Assembly: GCA_008802785.1 (NCBI GenBank) | Contig: VUYT01000024.1 | Coordinates: 1 to 64,000 of the forward strand | Direction of reading: 5' to 3' | DNA from: Symmetrospora coprosmae | Taxonomy: Eukaryota > Basidiomycota > Cystobasidiomycetes > Symmetrosporaceae | Length of the DNA: 64,000 nt | Shown here: piece after piece, positions 26,126-59,412 of the stretch | Position numbering within the stretch: position 1 is the stretch's first letter | How the letters are laid out: every line of letters begins with the position of its first letter | Notes under the pieces: model-generated | Databases searched by the model: none | Told to the model about the DNA's origin: nothing | What the model saw: the letters and a program-made list of their open reading frames with translations, nothing else | Made by a program: the position numbers and the translations under genes

Positions 26126-28060
26126 TCACAGATCCTTCCGCACCTGCAGACGCTTCTTGAGCATCTTCTCCGCCAGGAAGCGATAGCTTGACGGGTTGAC
26201 TGGCAGGAGCCACTGCGTCAACGTCGACCACGTGCTGATATCAAGCTTCAGATCGCCGAGCATGTCGTCGATATTGTGCAGCGAGAAAGGCACGACGTTC
26301 GTTCCGCGCGAGTGCTTCCCTCGCGTCCGGTCCTGCATCCAGTCGAGCTCTGCTCGTGCACGCTGCCTCTGCTCCTCTACCGAGGGCAGCTCGAGCGTCC
26401 CTTCGAGGATGGCGATGACCCAGAGCGCGGCCACTTCAAAAGAAGTGGGGCAAAACAGCGACGAATTGTAGCCGATGAAGAAGAGATTGTCGATGCCGGG
26501 CGGGTTGATGAAGCGATGCAAGAGAAAGTTGCCCTTGTCGTCCGTGATCTGCGACATCACACGCTCCTGATTGAGGAAAGGCACGCGCTGGTGGAAGCCC
26601 GTCCCACACGAGACAATGTCGGCCGGGATGACCTCTCCATTCGACAGCTCCACGGAGGGCCGCTGACGGCTTGATCCGTCGTCTTCGCCAGCTGCTACAG
26701 CGACCAGGCGGGTTATCTCGGTGTCGCGCTTGAGCTTGATGTCCCCGCTCTCGACCAGCTCGAAGAAGCTCTCGGTAACCAGACTTATGCTGGCACGGGC
26801 GATATCTTCAAAGCGACCCGGCGGAAGGGTGTCGCCTTTCAGCTTGAGCTGCCGCGTGACGAGCCATTCAACAGTGCCGACCATGGCATTGCGTAGCCGA
26901 CGGAGCGGTCCATGGAGAATGCGCATGACTGCAGGTCGGAAAGCTCAAGTCAGCCAGTCGATTGCGCTCAGCGGCCTATGCGGATCTAGCTCACCAGGTG
27001 TGGGCCGTATGTACTCGAAAAGAGCCTCTCCAACCCGACTATATCGAAACGAGGACGAGAGTCAGCCCGGGACTGCATGCACAAGCCGGTATTCTCATGC
27101 ACCCCAGGAACAGGTAAGAGTAGCACAGTCCGGCGATGAATTTTGGTAGCTTCCAGATGAGCTTCCGCGCGACTACAGTCTATGAGATCACATTCGGTCA
27201 GCATGGTAGAAGCGTCACGCATAGGCTGAACGACCAGACGCACCGTCGAAGCAGCGATCTCACTTAGCGCGACTGCGGAGTCGCACGCAGACTTCCCATA
27301 TCCAACGATGATGACGTTCTTGCCTCTCGCCTCCTCTGCATCCAGGAAGTCTGAAGTGTGCACCAGCTTACCTCCCGCTTCCGTAAATTCCGCTAGTCCT
27401 TTGTAGTCTGGGACCATCCCGTCCGAGAAGGTGCCATTGCAGACTAGCAGGATATCGAATTCCTTGCTTGACGTATCGGCGTCGAGCAGCGGACGGCGGT
27501 TTCCGTCGCACGGACGAGTCGTGACGGTCCAGCGCTTGCTCTTGTCGTCCTGCACCGCTTCGATGACCTCGGCGTTGACGTTGATATGGCGCCGCAGGTC
27601 GAAGCGGTCTACGTAGGAGTCCAGGTATGCCTGCACTTGCGGGCCCGAGGGCCAGTCGGGATACGATGCAGGCATGGGCATCTCGGAGAGGTAGTCTAGG
27701 AAGTGGAAAGGAGCGGATGCGTCACGCCGAATCTCGGTCGGGTCAAGGGAAGGAGGTCTTGAGCGCACACGTAGACTTCACGTTCTGCGTGCCAAGGCCA
27801 GGATAGCTGCGCGTCTCTACACAGAGGAAAGCGTCAGGAAGGCGTGGTGGCGAATGCTTCTGAGCTGCCACAACCTACTCGACCACACTCCGCCTACATC
27901 GGGCCTGTGCGAGGGAACTGTCAGCAGAGGCTCGCTGCACGTAATGCGCAGGAACTGACGCCTTCTCGTAGATGGTGATATCGTATCCGAACTGGTCAAA
28001 AACGCGTGAAGCGGCTATGCCACTGAAACCACACCCTACAGAGACAAGCAGCGTCGGCAT
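26126..28060 (-). CDS. Flavin-containing monooxygenase
   Basis: FAD/NADPH enzyme of the class B monooxygenase (FMO) type, oxygenating soft nucleophiles such as amines or sulfides; real substrate unknown. Seven exons: 27960-28060, 27879-27904, 27769-27816, 27244-27695, 27103-27179, 26995-27038, 26126-26928 (516 aa). The FAD site is VGCGFSGIAAS, followed by YEKAPDVGGVW and TRSYPGLGTQNVKSTYY. The NADPH site is IIVGYGKSACDSAVALS; GGKLVHTSDF stands at the FMO-identifying position. The C-terminal half has CGTGFHQRVPFL and IDNLFFIGY. There is no signal peptide or clear C-terminal membrane anchor. It is divergent from the secreted array. Confidence 0.9.
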
Positions 28061-29107: not shown

Positions 29108-30109
29108 ATGCTCGTTTTCACAGTGCGCCGCACATGTGCTATCACTCTGGCAGGCATCACCGCCTTCTCTGGCATACTCGGGAGCCCAGTTCCTACCGAT
29201 ATCGAGCTGGTCCTGCCGACAGAGCCTGTCCCCGTTGGTCAGTATGAGACGCCGATCACCAATATCTGGAAGTGGTTGGGGACATCGCTGTAAGGCCGCG
29301 GGTCTCCAACTGATCTCGCACCATTGATGCTGTAATCGCAGGCAGTATGATGTCTATCGGGCTCAGGGGTCCAAGCAAAGGGCCGGACCAGCTCTTCAGC
29401 GCCACCCAGCTGTACGTGACAGGGTCCTCAGACGTGCTCAACAATCCGACAAACGCGACTTCCTGGGCGGATGCCGGTGGCATTAACGGTCCTGGTAAGC
29501 CGGCCAATCAAAAGATCATCCGCCCCCGGTGCCCGCTGAGCTCTCGACTTTCCCTTCTGGCAGTACCGTCTTGGGACCAGACCACAGGAGACTTTGCTCC
29601 GCTGCTCGAGTCACGCCAGTACTGCGCATCTGCATCAGGGACGGGCGGCGGAACGTTCAACTACAACACTTCGACGTGGGCGCCCGGTACATACGAGGTG
29701 CGAGTACGGACCATAGTGTACTATGGCAGCGGAGGTGTCGAAAGCAACGGGACTGCACCTGGCGGAGGCGAGCGGTTCTGCATCAGTCCGCCTTACACCA
29801 GTGAGTCTAGGGTTTCGCTACGCTTGCTGCGGATCCTAGAGTAGTTGATGCAGCGAGTACGTCATGTGATTCGTTGCACCAGATTATACAGCAGCCAGAA
29901 CAGTCACGCTCAATGTTGTCGACGGCCCTGGCAATGGTCAGCCTCTGCCGAGCGCTACAAGCATTATCGAGTTCCCCAGAAGTGTCGATGCCGAGGGCAA
30001 ACCACAGTCACATCCCACGTCGGCAGCAAAGCTGACCGCCGTCAGCCTGGTGTACACTGCCCTGCCTGCAGGCGTGGCATTGATCGGTCTCACCGGAATC
30101 TTCTTCTGA
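29108..30109 (+). CDS. Secreted array gene A, probable GPI protein
   Basis: First of three tandem paralogues; family not recognised. Exons: 29108-29237, 29342-29494, 29564-29800, 29883-30109 (248 aa). All three introns are phase 1; the first two split a glycine codon and the third sits in A|AY (Asn). A signal peptide (MLVFTVRRTCAITLAGITAF) is followed by an exported domain with TQLYVTGSSDVL, NYNTSTWAPGTYEVRVRTIV and a Cys pair (RQYCAS, RFCISPPY) like gene C. Several N-glycosylation sequons are present. The C-terminus is hydrophobic with no charged tail (VYTALPAGVALIGLTGIFF), as for a GPI signal. A cell-wall or surface role is inferred. Confidence 0.85.
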
Positions 30110-30626
30110 TGTGCTCACGATTGCCCTTCCTTCGCAACAGGGCATGACTCTAGACTTGCATTGTATGTTCTACGTGGTCCGGCCAACGCATGTTCACCCA
30201 ACCGCCATACATGGCGCATTGCCTGTCCCTCCCGTATTACCATGACTATCTTGCAAACGAGAGCCCGCGCAAGACGATCGAGCAGATGTCGAGCACGGTC
30301 TCCCGTGGCGGAGCTTGACCAGCACTTCAGAGATGTACAGCCTACGGTAACTGCGAGGGATCGGAGCGCTGGCCGTGCCCTCCTGCCTTTCCGAGAGAGC
30401 AAGCTTGGAAGTCGGCCCAGCACGCAATGCCGCCTTTGCCGAGCCCGGCATGACGTCAGCAGGAACCCGAACCGAAGGACTTGGCTGTCTTGCTCGACAT
30501 GCTCCCAAGAGCTCCTAGAGTGTGCAGAGGGATAAGACTGTGCAGCACCATGTGCCTAACCTTCGTCTGTCGCTGCGTATCTTCCCCTTGCGTTTTGAGC
30601 TTAACTGACGACCTGGCATCAATAGC
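30110..30626. other. Spacer between array genes A and B
   Basis: 517 nt, no supported gene; 3' region of A and promoter of B. Confidence 0.4.
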
Positions 30627-31709
30627 ATGAAGGGACGCAACGTCACAGCGACGGCTACGGCTACACTGCTAGCACTTCTATGCGGCACCCTCACCTCGGC
30701 CCAGTCTTCACCCGACCGCTTCGTTCCCAGCCCCGTTTCGGGCGTTCTCACAGTATCTATCCCTCCGCCTGATGTCGAGATTTCCAGAGGTGAGCTCAAT
30801 ACAGCCCGACTATACATGCTCGAATCATTAACCAATCTCCTCCCTTCCTCTCCCTCTCTTTCCTGTCTTCACATCGCCTCGTCCTCTTGCTCTTCCTCGT
30901 CACATCCACATTTCTCTCTCCGTCTGGCACAGGCTCCCAACTGGAGATAGCCGTCCAATGGGACCGCGACTTGCGGGAACAAGCGTTCTTTGCGTATCAC
31001 GTCTCTCTAGCTCGCCAGGAAGCTTTCGTCGATGGAGTCGGAGTTTGGCAGGATAACCCGTCCGTTGTGGCCTTAGGTGACTGCGCTCGGCTGATCGTCC
31101 GCTCGAATCCATTAGTCCTGACATTGATTCTGTACTATTGCAGGCAATCTGTCGGTCCCTTCCCCGTTCTGGGGCTCTGGACCAACAGCGGACCCGCCCG
31201 TACTAGATAGCGAGCTCAACGTGACCACGCCCGCGCCCAATGGCATCAATACTCAAACGCCCGAATGGTCAACCTTTTGGTTCGAGACGGCCAACTTGGT
31301 GCCTGGAGGGTATGCGCTTCGAGTGCGCCAGTTCGTCTGGCAGGGCAGCACAGGAGTACGCTCGCTCGGAGAGGGTGACAACCAGGTCTGGTACATGGAG
31401 CCACCATTTACGAGTACGTATAACAGAGTTCAAGGACGAATGCCTTCTCGCAGCTCAGACTAACCTCGCATACCTTCAGACTATTCCAGCCAGGTTGTTC
31501 TGCGATTCTTCAACATCACGGAAGAAGGAAACGGTACGGCGCCCGAGCCGATCGTAGAGCAAGCTGTCTACACACGCACTATCGATGCATACGGCAATCC
31601 TCAGAACGCTCCAATAGCGAGCGGTGCATTGTCAGCCCTGGGCAGCCCGTTCGCGTTGGGCATGGCTCTACCTCTGTTCGCAGGAGTAGCCAGCTTTGTC
31701 ATGACCTGA
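30627..31709 (+). CDS. Secreted array gene B, probable GPI protein
   Basis: Second paralogue. Exons: 30627-30789, 30933-31076, 31144-31413, 31480-31709 (268 aa), again with all introns in phase 1 at G|GC, G|GC and A|AC codons. Signal peptide MKGRNVTATATATLLALLCG ends near LTSAQSS. Exon 3 keeps the family core (FWFETANLVPGGYALRVRQF, then EPPFT) but lacks the cysteine pair shared by A and C and has tryptophan-rich replacements (NQVWYMEPPF). The C-terminal hydrophobic tail is FALGMALPLFAGVASFVMT. It is the most diverged copy, so its ligand or role may have shifted. Confidence 0.85.
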
Positions 31710-31992
31710 AGGCAATCATCGTCGTACTTTGAGAACACCAATGTGCAAGGCAAACAGAAATCACCTCAGCCCGGCTGCCGTCACTGACCAAACAAACGAA
31801 TGCGGAAGTCCGTTCTCGGCAACCGCGGGTTGCCTCTGTTTGGCCGCCGGCTTTTGACCCAACACTGCCTCGTGCCCTGTCTTCGCACTTGCGCTTCCTT
31901 CCCTCGCGCTCTCTGCTCGCTTCGTCTCTTGCCGCCGTACCATTGGATTACCCTCTTCACTTCCATACCCCTTCGGAACCACAATCGAGGTC

Positions 31993-32931
31993 ATGCTTTC
32001 TGTCAAGCTCACAGTCGCTGCCATCGCAGTTTGCGCCCTCTCTGCCGTCTCCGCTCAGGTGACGGAGACTCCGGTCACACTGCCTGCTGGATCAACGCCT
32101 GCAGGTGAGCATTGCGGTCCATCCTTTCTGAGACAGGCTCTTGCTAAGGCTGTCGATTTAGGCACCGACTTTACCGTCGGACTGGTCGGCAACGACGCAA
32201 TCGCCAACCCGGACGCAGCCTTCTACTCTACTCAGATCTTCTTTACCAATCACAGCACCACGAACCTGCTGTACACGAACGAATCCACCCCTATCCCTAT
32301 CGCAAGCGGCACCTTCAGCCCAGGTCAGTACTGCAGCAGCCGCCTGACCGCATTAGGCTGATTGCATCGACCTCACCAGGCTTCAAGAACGGCGCATGGA
32401 ACGAGACGACGCTGGACTTCACGCCCCTTAACGAGACGCGGTACTGCACCATGCGACCTGGCAATTCGCAGGCAAGCTTCTCCTACGATACGTCCACTTG
32501 GTCGCCTGGAAGCTACGATCTGCATGTCCGAACGATAGTCTTCAAGGGGGAAGCCAACGGAGTCGAGGTCAACAGCACCGATCCGAACCGAGTGGAGCTG
32601 TGCATTAGCGCACCCTTCACCAGTGCGTGCCTGCGATGCGGAATTGCAGTGTGACCGTGACTGACTCGATCACCGTCCCATCACAGATTCGACCACCGAG
32701 ACCATCGCCAGATTCGACATCTCTGCGGCTGGCAGCGGTCAGCCCAATTCCAGTCTTGGAAGCACGCTGGTCACGCTCCGTATGGCCACACAGCCTGCGA
32801 GTGCTACGGCAGGAGCGCCGACTGCCACTCCTGCTGGCACGGGTGGAGCCGCCCAACGAGTTCTCGTGGCCTCCGGTGCGGCCGTCCTCGCCGGCGCTGT
32901 ATGGTCGATGGGAGTTGCCTTCCAGTACTGA
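31993..32931 (+). CDS. Secreted array gene C, probable GPI protein
   Basis: Third paralogue. Exons: 31993-32104, 32162-32323, 32380-32622, 32687-32931 (253 aa), with the same four-exon, all-phase-1 layout. Signal peptide MLSVKLTVAAIAVCALSAVS. Exon 2 reads TQIFFTNHSTTNLLYTNEST, parallel to TQLYVTGSSDVLNNPTNAT in A. Exon 3 has YDTSTWSPGSYDLHVRTIVF and the same two cysteines as A (RYCTM, LCISAPFT). The Ala/Thr/Pro-rich stem before the hydrophobic end (VLVASGAAVLAGAVWSMGV) looks like an O-glycosylated spacer before GPI attachment. Confidence 0.86.
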
Positions 32932-33411: not shown

Positions 33412-35059
33412 ATGAGGTGGTTCACGAAGACGACTCTTGCTGCGGGAGGTGCGCTCTCTGCTTCTTATGCGGCTGTCGCTCCTCTGCCAGTCCTCAGACG
33501 AGGCTGAAGCCATCCCTCTTGTTGCCACCGCAGCACTGCTGGCCAGTCTGTCCTCCGCAGTCGCGTCGCCCAACCCGAACTACGAGATCTCAAAGACGAG
33601 CGTCAACGTTGACAAGCACAGAGAGAAGCTCGACAATGGCGAAATCATTGTCCGCGTCCAGAGGTGAGTGGTGTGGCATACCCCCTTGGCCGCGAGTCGC
33701 CACATTCAACAGGCTCATCTCTTTGCTCGCTACGTTACTCAGGACCGACGACCTGTTCTCCGATCCTACGGCCGACCATGATGCCAAGCTACTCCTCGAG
33801 AAGAATACTCATATTGCTCTCCGCATTCAGCTCGACAGGAGCTCCGGAAAGGTCAACGTCAACGATCATCCACTCGACGTGACGGATCACAAGGGCGCTA
33901 CCTTGACCGGTCTCAAGGTTGACGTACGTCTATGCCCCTCCTTCCATCGTATGATGTTGCTGATGGACAGGTCGTTGCCTTCCTCCAGACCTACCGCCTG
34001 CCGCATGGTCACGACTCGCCTGTTGTGTCCGCCGACGAAATGTACGCGCTGATGGATCAGCTCTCGGCCGGCATCGCAAAGATTGAAGTCCGACTCGAGA
34101 CCGAGCCTGTCAGCCCAGCCATTGGCATGGCGACCTATACTGAGGGCGAGGACCTCCCTTCCATCCAGTCCATCTCGGTCCGTAAGGTCGGGCTCTGGAT
34201 CCGCATCACCGAGATTGAGGGCAAGGAGGTTGTGCACAGCCACTCGATCTACACTCCTATTCTCCAGCTTGTCGTCACCTCGTCCGGCGGCAAGGTCAAC
34301 AAGATTTCAACCTTGGCTATCGACGGCAAAGCTCCATTGGATGCTCTCGCTCAGCCCGGACCAGCTGTCGGACAAGTATTGCCCGAAGCCGCTCGCCAGC
34401 CGCACCATGGGCCTCCTCACCACCACGACCGACCTGCTGAGGGCCTTCTCGGCTGGATCTCGGGACTTTTCGGTGGCAGACGACCGGAGCGCCCCGGACG
34501 AGCTGGTCTCGGTCGACGCCCGGGCTGCCATAGGGGACAGCAGATGCAGAAGGAGGCTGTTGAGAAGCCTGCATCTGCCAAGGTTGCAGCTGACTCGTCC
34601 GCGAGCGCCGCCTCAATGCAGCACGATGACATTGCGGATCACATCAAGGGCCCCGGACTGGCTGGCATGGGCGGCGCGCCTCTCCACCGAGGACGTCCTC
34701 ATGCCGGACACGGACCTCACGGCGAACAACCTTCGCGTGGCAAGCAGGAACCGGGCTTCTTCGCGCGACTGGCTGACACGCTCAGGCCTATGCTTCCCGA
34801 CAACCCGTTCTACTATGCCCTGGGCGGCTGGTTCCTCTGCGTCGCCGTCGCTCTCTGCAACCTAAAGGCCCGCAGCTACGTAGTTGAGAATGGCGTTCGG
34901 CGAGAGGTGCCAGTCTTTGGCTCGCGTGAGGCACCTCCGGACGACGAAGAGAAGGAAGCTTTCCTCACCGAGAAGGAGAAGGAGGTACTGCAGGATGCCC
35001 ATCTCCAAACCGGAGAGGCTCTGCCGAAGTACCGAGAGACCATCTACTCCCTTTTCTAG
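33412..35059 (+). CDS. Uncharacterised type I membrane protein, His-rich
   Basis: Not recognised. Exons: 33412-33448, 33498-33663, 33743-33923, 33971-35059 (490 aa). An alternative acceptor at 33509 removes Asp-Glu-Ala-Glu and gives a better signal peptide (AIPLVATAALLASLSSAVAS). The lumenal part has EISKTSVNVDKHREKLDNGE, FLQTYRLPHGHDSPVVSADE and HSIYTPILQLVVTSS. A long low-complexity stretch of His, Pro, Gly and Arg follows (PHHGPPHHHDR, HRGRPHAGHGPHG). One membrane span (YALGGWFLCVAVALCNL) leads to an acidic cytosolic tail of about 60 residues ending YRETIYSLF. The tail could carry a YxxF-type sorting signal. The Swp1/ribophorin II family was considered but the topology does not fit. Confidence 0.8.
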
Positions 35060-42212: not shown

Positions 42213-44270
42213 TCAAGCAGCCTGATCGACCGGCTCGGAGCTCTCGGCGTTCCTGCTAGGGTGCTGCTGGTGCAGCGGGGACGGCGCGTGGCTGTGTCCT
42301 CTGCCAGATGTCGGCGGGCCGCTGGCGAACCTGACGCTGGGCGAATGGACCGCCCTCTGCTGTGCAGCCCCTTCGCCGGCAGCGCTACCCGTGCCATATT
42401 GCGCAGCGGCCATGTGCGATGTCGAAGCGGGTGCTGACGACCCATAAGCGTAAGGAGGCTGTCCCAGCCCAGCGGACGGGGCGGATCCAGCAGAGTGCGC
42501 ACTCGACGGGTCGAGCGTGAGCGCGCCAGTCCGGGGCGAGAAGAGGCTGTATGGTCCGTTCTCGACGTGAGGCGTACCGAACCCGGCTGATGGGAGAGGA
42601 CCGCTGCTCGCGTACGAAAGGTGAACTCAGCACAGCTCTGGCTGCACACCAGCACGAGATTCGGCAACATGGCAGTCAACGGACCTGGGGAGAGTCGCTC
42701 CGCGAGCCCGCTTTAGGCCAGCGCTAGCCGGAGCATTACCCTGCTGCTGCTGCTGCTGAGCAGCACGAGCAGCGATAGCAGCCGTCTCCGCCGGATCGGG
42801 AATGACGTAGTTGATTCTGGTAGACATGGCCTGGCCGATGGGTGCAGTGTTGGGCGGGAGCTCCATGCCCTGTCCTGGGCCAAGGTGCGGCTCGCCCTCG
42901 TGCATGTGCTGCGGGTGCATGCCGTGAGGATGTCCATAGTGGTGTTCGTGGCCGTGCATGTGTCCGTGCGCGTGCGGGTGCTCGTAGTACGCCATCTGTC
43001 CCAGCGCCGCAGCGGCCGTGTGAGGCGGGCCCATCATGCCGCTCGTGATAGGGCCAGGGCCATGCATGGACGCAGTAAAGGGTCCGCCAGGTCCCCCAGG
43101 ACCACCCATGAGGTCGCTCCCTGTGCTCATGCCGGCACTGCCGGTCGTGCCAGAGTGGTGCGTCAAGGGCGGCATGCCCAGACCGCCATTGCCGCCGACA
43201 CCGATGTGCGCTAGGATCTGGTCGACAGCTCGGCTCAGGTGCTCGAGGCGCTTTTCGACCTGATGTTAGACAACAGGGTTGACATCAGCTGAGCGGGCGA
43301 CCGGGGCGCCTTATTTGCATATTCAGTGGGACTCACTCCGTTCTGCCAGGCTCGGTCCTCGGGGCTATGACGAGGCAGGGAAGCATCAGGGTATGGTCTA
43401 ATGCAAAGGTTTGGGGTGGTGAGAATGCCTACTTCAGGAGGTAGTCCGATCGTCGCTCGAACATCTGTGTGAGAAAAGGCCGGAAGGGACCGTTAGTTCT
43501 GCGTGTAGCCCAGTCAGCTGCTCGTCACCGACTCACACAATCGACCTCTGTGCGAAGACCGAGTCAAAGCATCAGCATACGGTCGCACACTGGCTAAGCA
43601 TCGGTCTGCGCAGCCCACCATTGATGACACATCGCTTGCAAGGCGGGTTGTCGGCACCCTCACACCTCATCTTCTGCCTCCTGCAAGCCACTGCGAGGGT
43701 GAGTGAGACTACTTTGTTAGCCATGGCGGTGGAGAGTTCACTTGCACGAGTGACTCGACACCCACAACAAGCCCTGGAGGTCCGCGGTGCAGCCTTCCTC
43801 TTGCTCTTGCTGCTGCTCGCCGACTTTGGTGCCTTGCCAAAGTGCGACTCCATGCCCATCGCATAGCCACTGTCCATGTCGCCGTCGCCCTCGCCACTGC
43901 TGAGGGCGTCGTTGAGGTACGGACTGTCGTCCTGGTCATTGACCGAGTTTGTGGATCCGCCCCGGGTATGAGGTGGTCCTGCAGTCAGCATGGCGTACTG
44001 CGGCTGCGGAGAGGCCGAGGCAGAGAGAGATCGCATGGGATCCTCGTTGATGCTGAGGGTAAGTTGCTTCCCGCGGCTCAGACTCGAGGTCTGCTGGTTC
44101 TGCTGCTGCTGCCGCTGCTGTTGGTTACCCTGCTGAGCGAAGGCGGCGTGGTTGGAGTGTGCCTGAAGCTGCTGCTGGTGATGCTGCTGCTGCTGCTGCT
44201 GCTCCTGATGTGCTTGCTGCTGCTGCTGAACATGTTGCTGTTGCTGCATGTGTTCCTCGTAGCTGTTCAT
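42213..44270 (-). CDS. Zn2Cys6 transcription factor, poly-Gln and His-rich
   Basis: Fungal binuclear-zinc-cluster DNA-binding regulator, nuclear. Seven exons: 43766-44270, 43619-43690, 43537-43547 (11 nt), 43433-43464 (32 nt), 43337-43397, 42685-43259, 42213-42606 (549 aa). An in-frame ATG at 44345 would add 25 residues. The N-terminus is Gln-rich (MNSYEEHMQQQQHVQQQQQ). The cluster reads ACLACRRQKMRCEG, then PPCKRCVINEVDC: six cysteines with C-x2-C-x6-C...C-x2-C-x6-C spacing, the sixth supplied by the 11-nt exon. A short coiled coil for dimerisation follows (VEKRLEHLSRAVDQILAHIG). The C-terminal half is Gly/Met/His-rich (HAHGHMHGHEHHYGHPHG) with a second Gln run. No fungal-specific middle homology domain is obvious. 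Regulated genes are unknown. Confidence 0.9.
44096..44250 (-). repeat. CAG triplet tracts coding poly-Gln
   Basis: Interrupted CTG/CAG runs inside exon 1 of the Zn2Cys6 gene. On the opposite strand they form a long Leu-rich open frame that is not a gene. Confidence 0.85.
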
Positions 44271-45191
44271 GCCGGGCAACAGGAGAATCGACGCTCGAAG
44301 GGCGCCAGCAGACGCGACTGTCGCTCTGGGCTGAGAGAGTGTCACAGTACTCGCTCTGATTGACGGTGTAACGAAGCGTCAGCGACTGCGCCGAAGGACA
44401 ACTCCCGATGGCAGTGACCCGAAGTCGAGATGCGCGACGCTAGCGGAGGTGAGCCTCTGGGCCGACTTGTCGAGGAGGTGGGTCAAGCTGAGCAGACGAA
44501 GAGAGGAGGAACAGGAGAAGAGAGGGAGAAAGAGGGGATGAGAGGAGGATGGCCATATCGGCTGAACGCCCTTGTTCCGTCAGACAAGGGGGCCCGCTCG
44601 AGATCAGTCGCAGGCCAGTCAGTTTCCGTCCGCCTCGAATGTCCATCTTCCCCGGGTCTTCCTCCGTTGCGAAGACGGAGGCGGTCCGGGGAGGGACCGG
44701 AGGTGTGCTCGTCGTCCGTTCATTTGTCTGCTGCAAATAGGGGTGTCTGTATTGCTGAAGGGAGCTGGTTGCTCGCACGTTGCGCGTACTCGGATGGGCT
44801 TCGGCGCAAGAGATGCACGTGTCGCTGCCGAGGCCGCTGTCCGGCTGTCCGACCTAGCGACAACAAGGGGGCCCAGGATGCAGCCCAGCCGGTCTCTGCA
44901 TTGCGGCTGGCCATGCTGACCGGCTAGAGGAGCTCATCAGGACCCCTTTGCGATTCTGAAGTGAAGACGCTCCCGTCGTGGATTCCCGACCATTACGTCA
45001 CGGAGTCGGCCGGCGTCTGTCTCCGCTCTCCCCGACCGCGACCCGCGGGCGGCTGCGAGAGAGCTCGAGGACGACGGCAAGACGTCGCGCAGCCTACAAG
45101 AGCTCTTTCCCTCCCTTCTGACCTTCACGTCAACACTCATTCAGCTGGTTTCGACCTCATCAATCAGACTTCATAGCAAACCGCTCTAAAA
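44271..45191. promoter_or_regulatory. 0.9 kb divergent intergenic
   Basis: Between divergent starts of the Zn2Cys6 factor and the dienelactone-hydrolase-like gene. No gene seen; the long leader or promoter suits a regulator gene. Confidence 0.45.
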
Positions 45192-57126: not shown

Positions 57127-59412
57127 CTACCACTTTACGGCCAGACCGTTCACTTCAGTGCTTTCGATTGCCCGATATTGCGTCCGAAGCGCAGCCCGGA
57201 CTGCCGTCTGCGCGGGATCCCCCTTGGACAACGCCAGCTCGTTGAGGATCCGGCCTGCTAGAGCGTCGTTTTCGTCCTGATGCAGCATTGGCGTGACGTA
57301 TGGCCGCAGTGACTCGTGGATGGACAGGGATGTGTCCAAGCCATCGATGATCTTTCGGGTTCCGCTGCTGCCGCCCAGCCGCCAGTACAGCTCTTCCACC
57401 CGGCTCACCCACTCTTTGCCGCTGAGGACACGGTGACCGTCGCTCTGATCTGCCACAATCTTGAGCTCGCTGTCCGCGTCTTGCTGATCAGAATCGGTAA
57501 TGATCGGCATGCCTTCGCGGTCCACCTTGACTGGCAATGGATGCTTCGGAGGTGCGATCTGCCCTCCTCCGTTCACGCAGCCGGATGGACAAGCCATGAC
57601 CTCGATGAAATCGAAGCCTCGCTCCTGTACCCCGTCGGCGACTGGCGGTGTGCTAACCCCATTGACAGGCGTCGAGGTTCCTGACGACTTGGCCGACCGC
57701 CGCAGCATGCCGCCTCTGCCACCTCGGCGAGCTGCAAGGCCCCCTCCCGTGGTCACCGCCTTGCCAGCAGCTCCCTTGCTGACACCGACTCCCGTCTCCC
57801 TTCCAATCTTGCGCACTACGTTCTGCAGATTCCGGAAGCCGTAGCACTTTGCCCCTCGGAAGAGTGGCATGCTCGAAGCTCCTGCTTGAGTAGACCGCAA
57901 GACATACTCGACATAGTCCTCGCCTCGTACGAGGCGCGTGTCTAGCACCAAATGTGCGAGCGTATCTTCTGGCTGAGCGCGGATTGCCGCAGCGATAGCA
58001 TTGTGCAGATAGCTGCCACTTGCACTGCCCGCATGTAGAAGCATAGACGGCATGTATGCGTCTTCCTCCGGGGCATCTGGAAGCCCGTGGATGCCATTCT
58101 CCTCCTCGAGATAGGTGTCCAGGTCTACGTCTCTCTCCAAGAGCATCTTCTCTACCTCGCCCGTCGTTAGGACGCAGTCGACGTCTCTGTTGCCCTCCGC
58201 CGTCGCAAAGTCTGGACGCGATGCTTCCAGCTTCTTGTCGTAGCATGGCATTACCGAAACGTGATAGACGTCGTCTCGCCTGTTCACATAGCGCGGGGTA
58301 CAGGGTCGAGCTAGTCACTACTCGTTGCGCGGGAGGCATTTGCACGGAAGACTTACGCTAAGCCTAGTTTAGGCGCAAGCCATTTCTTGACGAGACTGCC
58401 CATAACCTGCTGCGGACTTTTGACGGCGCTGATGAACGGCAGGAGCTCGCCATGCGTCTTTTCCGCATAGCAAATCCAGCCTGGACATGCCGAGGCCAGT
58501 AGGGGAAAGCTGGTAGGCTTGATGAAGTTGTCTATAGCGACCGCCCTCCCTTTGCCCTTCGCATCGATAGCGAAGCTAGGACTGCGCTCATAGAACTCCG
58601 TCTGTCCTTCGAATAGCGAGAGGTGCCGTGCGAAGGTAGTGTCAAAGACAAGACGGAAGCCGAGCTCGCGGCGGAAGAACGCGCGCAGCCGACGCAGGCA
58701 TGTAGAAGGCTGGAGGTGGTGCAACGCTGCGAGAGAAGCCAGTGATTGTGGCGAAATGGAGAGGATCGGCGTGACATCCTGCAGATATGCCATTGCCTGT
58801 CAGCCTATCGCACTCGCACGCCACGACCAGGCAGCAGCACTTACCGGACGCTCGGCAAGAACCTTGTAGACCTCGTCCTGACTCTGCAGAGCTACCAGTA
58901 CCGACTCGGCCGAGGTCACGCATCCGCTGCATGCCAGGCAGTCATTAAGCGTGATTTCAGCCTTCTTGAGCTTCTCGCTTGGCTTCTGCGCGCCGGCGGA
59001 GGAAGTCGATGGGACGGCGTTGATCTCGTAGTAGGCACCGCTCGAGTGATCTATCTGAATCTCGGTCTGCGTGCAGGAGAAGCCAGGAACGCGTCAAACT
59101 CGTGTTTTGCAGGATGGCCCATCGTGGCAGCCACGCCACCGAAGAGGAGCAACGGACGAGAAGCGGGCAGTTGCAGGACACGCACAGCAGCTGAGCCTTT
59201 GGCATCTCTCGGCTCTGATGGCGAGTCTGCATCGTCCTTGGGTTCCTCCTTGACTGTCACTGGCTTGATGCACTCTTGTGAAGGTCCAAGAAAGTCATTG
59301 AGCTGGGTGTGGTAAAAAGCGGCCTCGCCCGTCAGCAGCTGCAGCCTGTGCTAGAGCACAGGCGGGCGCAGGTGCTCACGTCTGTCAGAGCAAGTGCGGC
59401 TGAGAAAGCCAT
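57127..59412 (-). CDS. NAR1: NAR1, cytosolic Fe-S assembly factor
   Basis: Iron-only-hydrogenase-like protein of the CIA machinery, linking the Nbp35-Cfd1 scaffold to the targeting complex for cytosolic and nuclear Fe-S proteins. Five exons: 59380-59412, 59186-59302, 58845-59066, 58357-58796, 57127-58279 (654 aa). N-terminal cluster ligands: Cys in SQECIKP plus [10 protein letters not shown]-terminal H-cluster-like ligands: [22 protein letters not shown] and [15 protein letters not shown] Gly/Arg/Ser insert ([20 protein letters not shown]) of about 50 residues sits before the last cysteine pair, which lengthens the protein over yeast Nar1 (491). Confidence 0.95.

What the first reader, a model, noticed from the sequence alone, without database searches (positions are those of the whole stretch)
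29108..32931. Three-gene tandem array of an unnamed secreted, probably GPI-anchored family
Genes A, B and C each have four exons, a signal peptide, a hydrophobic uncharged C-terminus, and three introns all in phase 1 at equivalent places (G|GC, G|GC or G|TA, A|AY). Exon 3 shares a TSTW.PG.Y..RVRTIV core in A and C, with ETANLVPGGYALRVRQF in B. A and C keep two cysteines that B has lost. Identical exon logic with low sequence identity means old local duplication and fast divergence, as expected of cell-surface proteins under selection. I know no named family with this core. All-phase-1 symmetrical exons would also allow exon shuffling.
Basis: partly seen in the sequence, partly recalled or inferred. 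Interest (0 to 1): 0.75.

Follow-up and report, generated by a model that had tools for sequence, protein, structure and literature searches.

The report
Three duplicated fungal cell-surface protein genes
Three neighbouring fungal genes are old copies of one another and probably make small surface-anchored proteins with no named relatives in the libraries searched; a sound observation, but of an ordinary kind.

Summary
Three four-exon genes lie head to tail on the + strand at 29108-30109 (A), 30627-31709 (B) and 31993-32931 (C). All nine introns are GT-AG and phase 1. The proteins are homologous: pairwise scores of 186, 270 and 103 beat all 500 shuffles each. Introns 1 and 3 fall in the same alignment columns in all three; intron 2 falls in a gapped stretch. 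C-termini are hydrophobic and uncharged, a combination found in 0 of 281 background ORFs. No credible relative or named domain appeared in Pfam, NCBIfam, PHROGs, PDB sequences, plasmids (A only), viral contigs or prokaryote genomes. No fungal proteome could be searched, so 'new to fungi' is untested. Structure prediction was uninformative (pLDDT 36 and 44). Best reading: tandem paralogues of a GPI-anchored wall or plasma-membrane protein with one small beta-rich ectodomain. The layout resembles Kre9/SGP1-type GPI proteins, but the PF10342 model and its conserved tryptophan are not matched. Selection for rapid divergence and exon shuffling are not supported.

The parts
29108..30109 (+). Gene A: exons 29108-29237, 29342-29494, 29564-29800, 29883-30109; 248 aa, signal-peptide-like N-terminus, sequons at 81, 129, 156, 174, uncharged hydrophobic tail
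29342..29494 (+). Exon 2 of A
29564..29800 (+). Exon 3 of A, holding the core TSTWAPGTYEVRVRTIV and Cys115/Cys167
30627..31709 (+). Gene B: exons 30627-30789, 30933-31076, 31144-31413, 31480-31709; 268 aa, no cysteine after the signal region
31144..31413 (+). Exon 3 of B, core ETANLVPGGYALRVRQF
31993..32931 (+). Gene C: exons 31993-32104, 32162-32323, 32380-32622, 32687-32931; 253 aa
32380..32622 (+). Exon 3 of C, core TSTWSPGSYDLHVRTIV, Cys114/Cys166
29495..29563 (+). Intron 2 of A: 69 nt, in frame, no stop on read-through (possible retained intron)
32105..32161 (+). Intron 1 of C: 57 nt, in frame, no stop on read-through (possible retained intron)

Best explanation
A, B and C are tandem paralogues in a fungal genome. 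Each encodes a small secretory-pathway protein: a signal peptide sends it into the ER, N-glycans are added at several sequons, a C-terminal hydrophobic signal is exchanged for a GPI anchor, and the protein is displayed at the plasma membrane or passed on to the wall. The ectodomain (end of exon 1 to end of exon 3) is most likely one small all-beta sandwich, closed in A and C by a disulphide between the two exon 3 cysteines. Exon 4 gives a short linker and the anchor signal. The likely role is a wall or surface structural, adhesive or glycan-binding one, with the copies specialised by stage or partner. Shown: splice-compatible gene structure, homology, the array, and the N- and C-terminal composition. 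Inferred: glycosylation, GPI anchor, fold, disulphide, role.
For: Homology beyond all shuffles and matching intron positions. tblastn of each protein on the window finds other copies: A to C 7.7e-19, A to B 3.0e-9, B to A 1.3e-7, C to A 1.2e-18, C to B 6.2e-4, B to C only 0.025. The last 20 residues have GRAVY 1.90, 1.68 and 1.17 with no charged residue in any; 0 of 281 background ATG ORFs of 60 aa or more have GRAVY of at least 1 and no charge there. Sequons are 4, 6 and 7 against shuffled means of 1.85, 1.88 and 3.08; shuffles reaching the observed count are 186, 8 and 39 of 2000, so A is not significant. dN is below dS in all six comparisons run. Both cysteines are present in A and C and both absent in B, as expected of a disulphide pair. 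Fungal setting: PAN2, Hsp70 and hydrogenase-like proteins and a fungal Zn2Cys6 cluster after removal of a GT-AG intron.
Against: No usable structure: pLDDT 36.3 and 44.3, from an intron-containing frame and an exon fragment, since I submitted only unspliced window translations. No expression data. Tail composition is not a GPI predictor, and a membrane anchor without a cytoplasmic tail is not excluded. N-terminal hydrophobicity alone is not distinctive: 47 of 281 background ORFs exceed 1.5 on the same measure. The function rests on analogy alone.
Confidence: 0.7

Rival explanations
1. They are diverged members of the Kre9/Knh1-like Ser-Thr-rich GPI family (PF10342), too far gone for the Pfam model to score.
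For: Similar layout: signal peptide, one N-terminal domain, GPI-type tail. A has I, V, G, I and B has V, I, G, I at the spacing of SGP1 I25, I34, G37, V42.
Against: No PF10342 hit for any of the three at a limit of E 10, although HMMER's filters drop most matches above about 0.1. The W44 position holds L, V and L, and C also lacks two of the hydrophobic positions. The loose spacing pattern, which I drew up after seeing the sequences, occurs in 364 and 413 of 5000 shuffles of A and B, so it is not significant. Ser/Thr make up 0.16-0.24 of the whole proteins; in the 40 residues before the last 25 there are 7, 5 and 12 Ser/Thr in A, B and C, so A and B have no Ser/Thr-rich stalk there.
Confidence: 0.2
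2. They are small single-pass membrane or fully secreted proteins, not GPI-anchored.
For: No GPI predictor could be run; hydrophobic C-termini also occur in tail-less membrane proteins.
Against: No charged residue in the last 20 of any copy, and by eye small residues (Ser, Ala, Gly) lie just upstream of the tail in all three (sequences printed), as a GPI signal needs.
Confidence: 0.2
3. The array is a set of host-interaction proteins or adhesins under diversifying selection.
For: Probable surface display, tandem copies, 20-35% identity.
Against: dN below dS in all six comparisons and dS saturated; organism and lifestyle unknown.
Confidence: 0.1

Closest known systems
Ser-Thr-rich GPI-anchored / Kre9-Knh1-like proteins (PF10342), for example SGP1 of Ustilaginoidea virens (PMC8079714, passages seen)
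   Same: Fungal, secreted, an N-terminal domain near the signal peptide (SGP1 residues 22-120), GPI-type C-terminus; glycine-centred strand spacing partly shared by A and B
   Different: No Pfam match, tryptophan position not conserved in any of the three, longer region between signal and tail, two cysteines in A and C, little Ser/Thr enrichment before the tail in A and B
AGL surface proteins of Glomeromycotina (PMC8786786, passages seen)
   Same: Co-located small gene family, conserved gene structure with low protein identity, ER and GPI signals in many members
   Different: AGLs are Pro/Gly/Ala-rich, predicted disordered, many with tandem repeats, and have one intron (two in some Gigasporaceae); A, B and C have a conserved non-repetitive core and three introns
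Typical ascomycete GPI adhesins (review PMC6023273, passages seen)
   Same: Signal peptide, often a folded beta-sheet N-terminal domain, GPI signal
   Different: Those are 600-2500 residues with Ser/Thr-rich tandem repeats; these are 248-268 residues and no repeats were noted

Membership tests
Kre9/Knh1-like Ser-Thr-rich GPI family (PF10342) | Match to the Pfam model | tested here: not met
   0 families listed at a limit of E 10 for A, B and C (filters drop most matches above about 0.1)
Kre9/Knh1-like Ser-Thr-rich GPI family (PF10342) | Most conserved residues of SGP1 homologues, spaced I-x8-I-x2-G-x4-V-x-W (passages of PMC8079714) | tested here: not met
   A I,V,G,I,L; B V,I,G,I,V; C T,T,G,V,L at these positions; W absent in 3 of 3; loose form reached in 364 and 413 of 5000 shuffles for A and B
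Kre9/Knh1-like Ser-Thr-rich GPI family (PF10342) | Ig-like beta-sandwich fold (recalled, not from a call) | tested here: inconclusive
   AlphaFold2 pLDDT 36.3 and 44.3 on unspliced pieces
GPI-anchored surface proteins (general class) | N-terminal signal peptide | tested here: inconclusive
   Max 12-residue GRAVY in the first 35 residues 1.75, 1.90, 2.63, but 47 of 281 background ORFs exceed 1.5; no signal-peptide predictor was available
GPI-anchored surface proteins (general class) | C-terminal hydrophobic, uncharged tail | tested here: met
   3 of 3 copies, 0 of 281 background ORFs
GPI-anchored surface proteins (general class) | Actual GPI modification | not testable with these tools
   needs a predictor or biochemistry
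Known cell-wall enzyme families | Match to a catalytic domain model or solved enzyme | tested here: not met
   no Pfam or NCBIfam family listed at a limit of E 10; no credible PDB sequence match, best of 13 E 0.14 to an SH2 domain

The most novel reading that the evidence does not exclude
A lineage-restricted family of GPI-anchored surface proteins with its own ectodomain fold or ligand, not derived from Kre9-like or other named families, expanded in tandem in this fungus.
Probability: 0.25. Interest if true: 0.45.

Novelty: new member of a known kind. Interest (0 to 1): 0.27.

Why it matters
[quoted passage not shown] A clean three-copy array with conserved exon borders gives a seed alignment for a new family model. 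By itself it does not change any view of wall biology.

Tried and rejected
Relatives: pattern-and-tblastn scans with the three-protein alignment of genome contigs (74 candidate stretches, 0 confirmed) and viral contigs (97 candidates, 0 confirmed), each using two peptide patterns; tblastn of A alone on plasmids (no match); PHROGs (one match, E 0.2); PDB sequences (13 matches at E up to 10, best 0.14, judged chance). The contig and plasmid collections are not fungal, so their silence says little. Phages, E. coli genomes and metagenomes were not searched. I tried to reach PF10342 relatives for a profile-profile test: an E. coli locus as handle failed, and a second genome-contig scan with the window's hydrogenase-like protein, meant to supply a genome handle, gave 22 candidates and 0 confirmed; dropped. 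The window's own genome is not held.

The model has six strands and one short helix, which would fit a mainly-beta domain, but at pLDDT 36 this is not evidence. The first alignment for this (A2) misplaced the exon 2 rows; I dropped the B exon 2 row and cut C exon 2 to 33 residues to make A3.

Exon shuffling was considered: no exon elsewhere in the window. Diversifying selection was considered: dS saturated. The PF10342 strand pattern was considered: not beyond chance.

Listings were partial (20 of 169; 12 of 76; 10 of 28). No listing showed a named family fitting this array, but text search cannot query a sequence motif.

Full report
What is there. The window is fungal DNA by its content: PAN2, Hsp70, IPP transferase and hydrogenase-like proteins among ten long reading frames scanned, spliceosomal introns, and a fungal Zn2Cys6 cluster on the - strand near 43.7 kb that is whole once a 75-nt GT-AG intron is removed. 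The organism was not identified and its genome is not held. At 29108-32931, + strand, I rebuilt three four-exon genes, giving 248, 268 and 253 residues, with intergenic gaps of 517 and 283 bases.

Gene structure. All nine introns are GT-AG and 56-143 nt long. All are phase 1, and exons 2 and 3 are multiples of three in every gene. Five of nine introns carry a CTRAY word upstream of the acceptor, against 11% of random 43-base pieces of the window (binomial 0.0015). Five of nine contain an in-frame stop when read through. The other four (A2, B1, B2, C1) do not, and two of those (A intron 2, C intron 1) also have a length divisible by three, so retention there would keep the frame.

Homology. Local alignment scores of 186 (A-B), 270 (A-C) and 103 (B-C) were reached by 0 of 500 shuffles each. 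A profile built from the three matches, in the six-frame window, only frames that hold exons of A, B and C (by construction), the next hit having E 0.68. Single-protein tblastn on the window links A to C and A to B strongly, C to B at 6.2e-4, and B to C only at 0.025. Identity over aligned codons is 29%, 35% and 20% for A-B, A-C and B-C. Introns 1 and 3 lie in identical alignment columns, at an invariant glycine and an invariant asparagine; intron 2 lies within a span of nine columns in a gapped stretch. A and C, the outer genes, are the closest pair, so either the array did not grow by simple neighbour-to-neighbour copying or B has changed faster; with no outgroup this cannot be settled.

Features. 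The N-termini carry hydrophobic stretches like signal peptides, but the measure used is weak (47 of 281 background ORFs exceed 1.5). The last 20 residues have no charged residue in any copy and GRAVY 1.17-1.90; 0 of 281 background ORFs share both properties. This background is all ATG ORFs of at least 60 aa in six frames, mostly not genes, so it measures chance and not the frequency among real proteins. Sequons number 4, 6 and 7; few shuffles reach those of B and C (8 and 39 of 2000), more reach that of A (186 of 2000). Cys115/Cys167 of A and Cys114/Cys166 of C are both absent from B; joint presence or absence suggests a disulphide (inference).

Selection. In the conserved core dN/dS estimates are 0.43/2.25 (A-C), 0.82/3.15 (A-B) and 0.84/1.03 (B-C); over the full length 0.75/2.56, 0.95/2.57 and 1.17/1.51. 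dS is saturated throughout, so these point to constraint in A-C and say nothing reliable about positive selection.

Relatives. No Pfam or NCBIfam family listed at a limit of E 10, one PHROGs match at E 0.2, PDB best E 0.14 to an SH2 domain, none confirmed in genome or viral contigs, none on plasmids for A. Pfam and the PDB include fungal proteins, but no fungal proteome could be searched, so the family may be common and simply unnamed.

Fold. AlphaFold2 on A exon 2 to exon 3 read through intron 2, with B exon 3, C exon 3 and part of C exon 2, gave pLDDT 36.3; on A exon 3 with B and C exon 3, 44.3. Both are uninformative, and I ran no fold search on them. The all-beta sandwich in my best explanation is inference from the sequence pattern.

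Comparison with known kinds. The closest kind in layout is the Ser-Thr-rich GPI family (PF10342) of Kre9 and SGP1. From passages of PMC8079714, SGP1's domain spans residues 22-120, and of the residues its activity needs, I25, I34, G37, V42 and W44 are the most conserved. A and B match the hydrophobic and glycine positions loosely, C matches only part, the tryptophan is absent in all three, and shuffles reach the loose pattern in 7-8% of cases for A and B. So 'works like' a Kre9-type surface protein is reasonable, while membership was tested and not met.

Phase symmetry. An excess of phase 1 introns near signal-peptide cleavage sites is described generally (PMC1626468, start of abstract in search listing). 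The neighbour at 33412-35059, modelled by eye, also has a phase 1 intron within its signal peptide, followed by phases 2 and 0, and the Zn2Cys6 gene's intron is phase 1 too. All-phase-1 symmetry is thus notable but not strong evidence of shuffling.

Verdict. A correctly read, real tandem array of an unnamed surface-protein family; ordinary in kind, with an open question of how widely it occurs.

Noticed in passing
33412-35059 +: Neighbouring four-exon gene (splice sites chosen by eye): signal-peptide-like start, His/Pro-rich middle, one likely transmembrane segment near the C-terminus by eye; no Pfam family at E up to 1. First intron is phase 1 inside the signal peptide.
   Followed up: partly
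26986-27777 -: Flavin monooxygenase-like reading frame (PF00743) upstream of the array on the opposite strand; an adjoining frame at 26126-26944 may belong to the same gene (not tested).
   Followed up: partly
43572-44378 -: Gln-rich protein whose Zn2Cys6 DNA-binding cluster is split by a 75-nt phase 1 intron (43765-43691); the unspliced frame has no Pfam hit, the spliced piece matches PF00172 at E 2.4e-7.
   Followed up: yes
57127-58314 -: Iron-only hydrogenase-like protein (PF02906), probably the cytosolic Fe-S assembly protein Nar1 (name recalled).
   Followed up: no
29495-29563 and 32105-32161 +: Two introns of the array are divisible by three and stop-free, so intron retention would give longer in-frame proteins.
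   Followed up: partly
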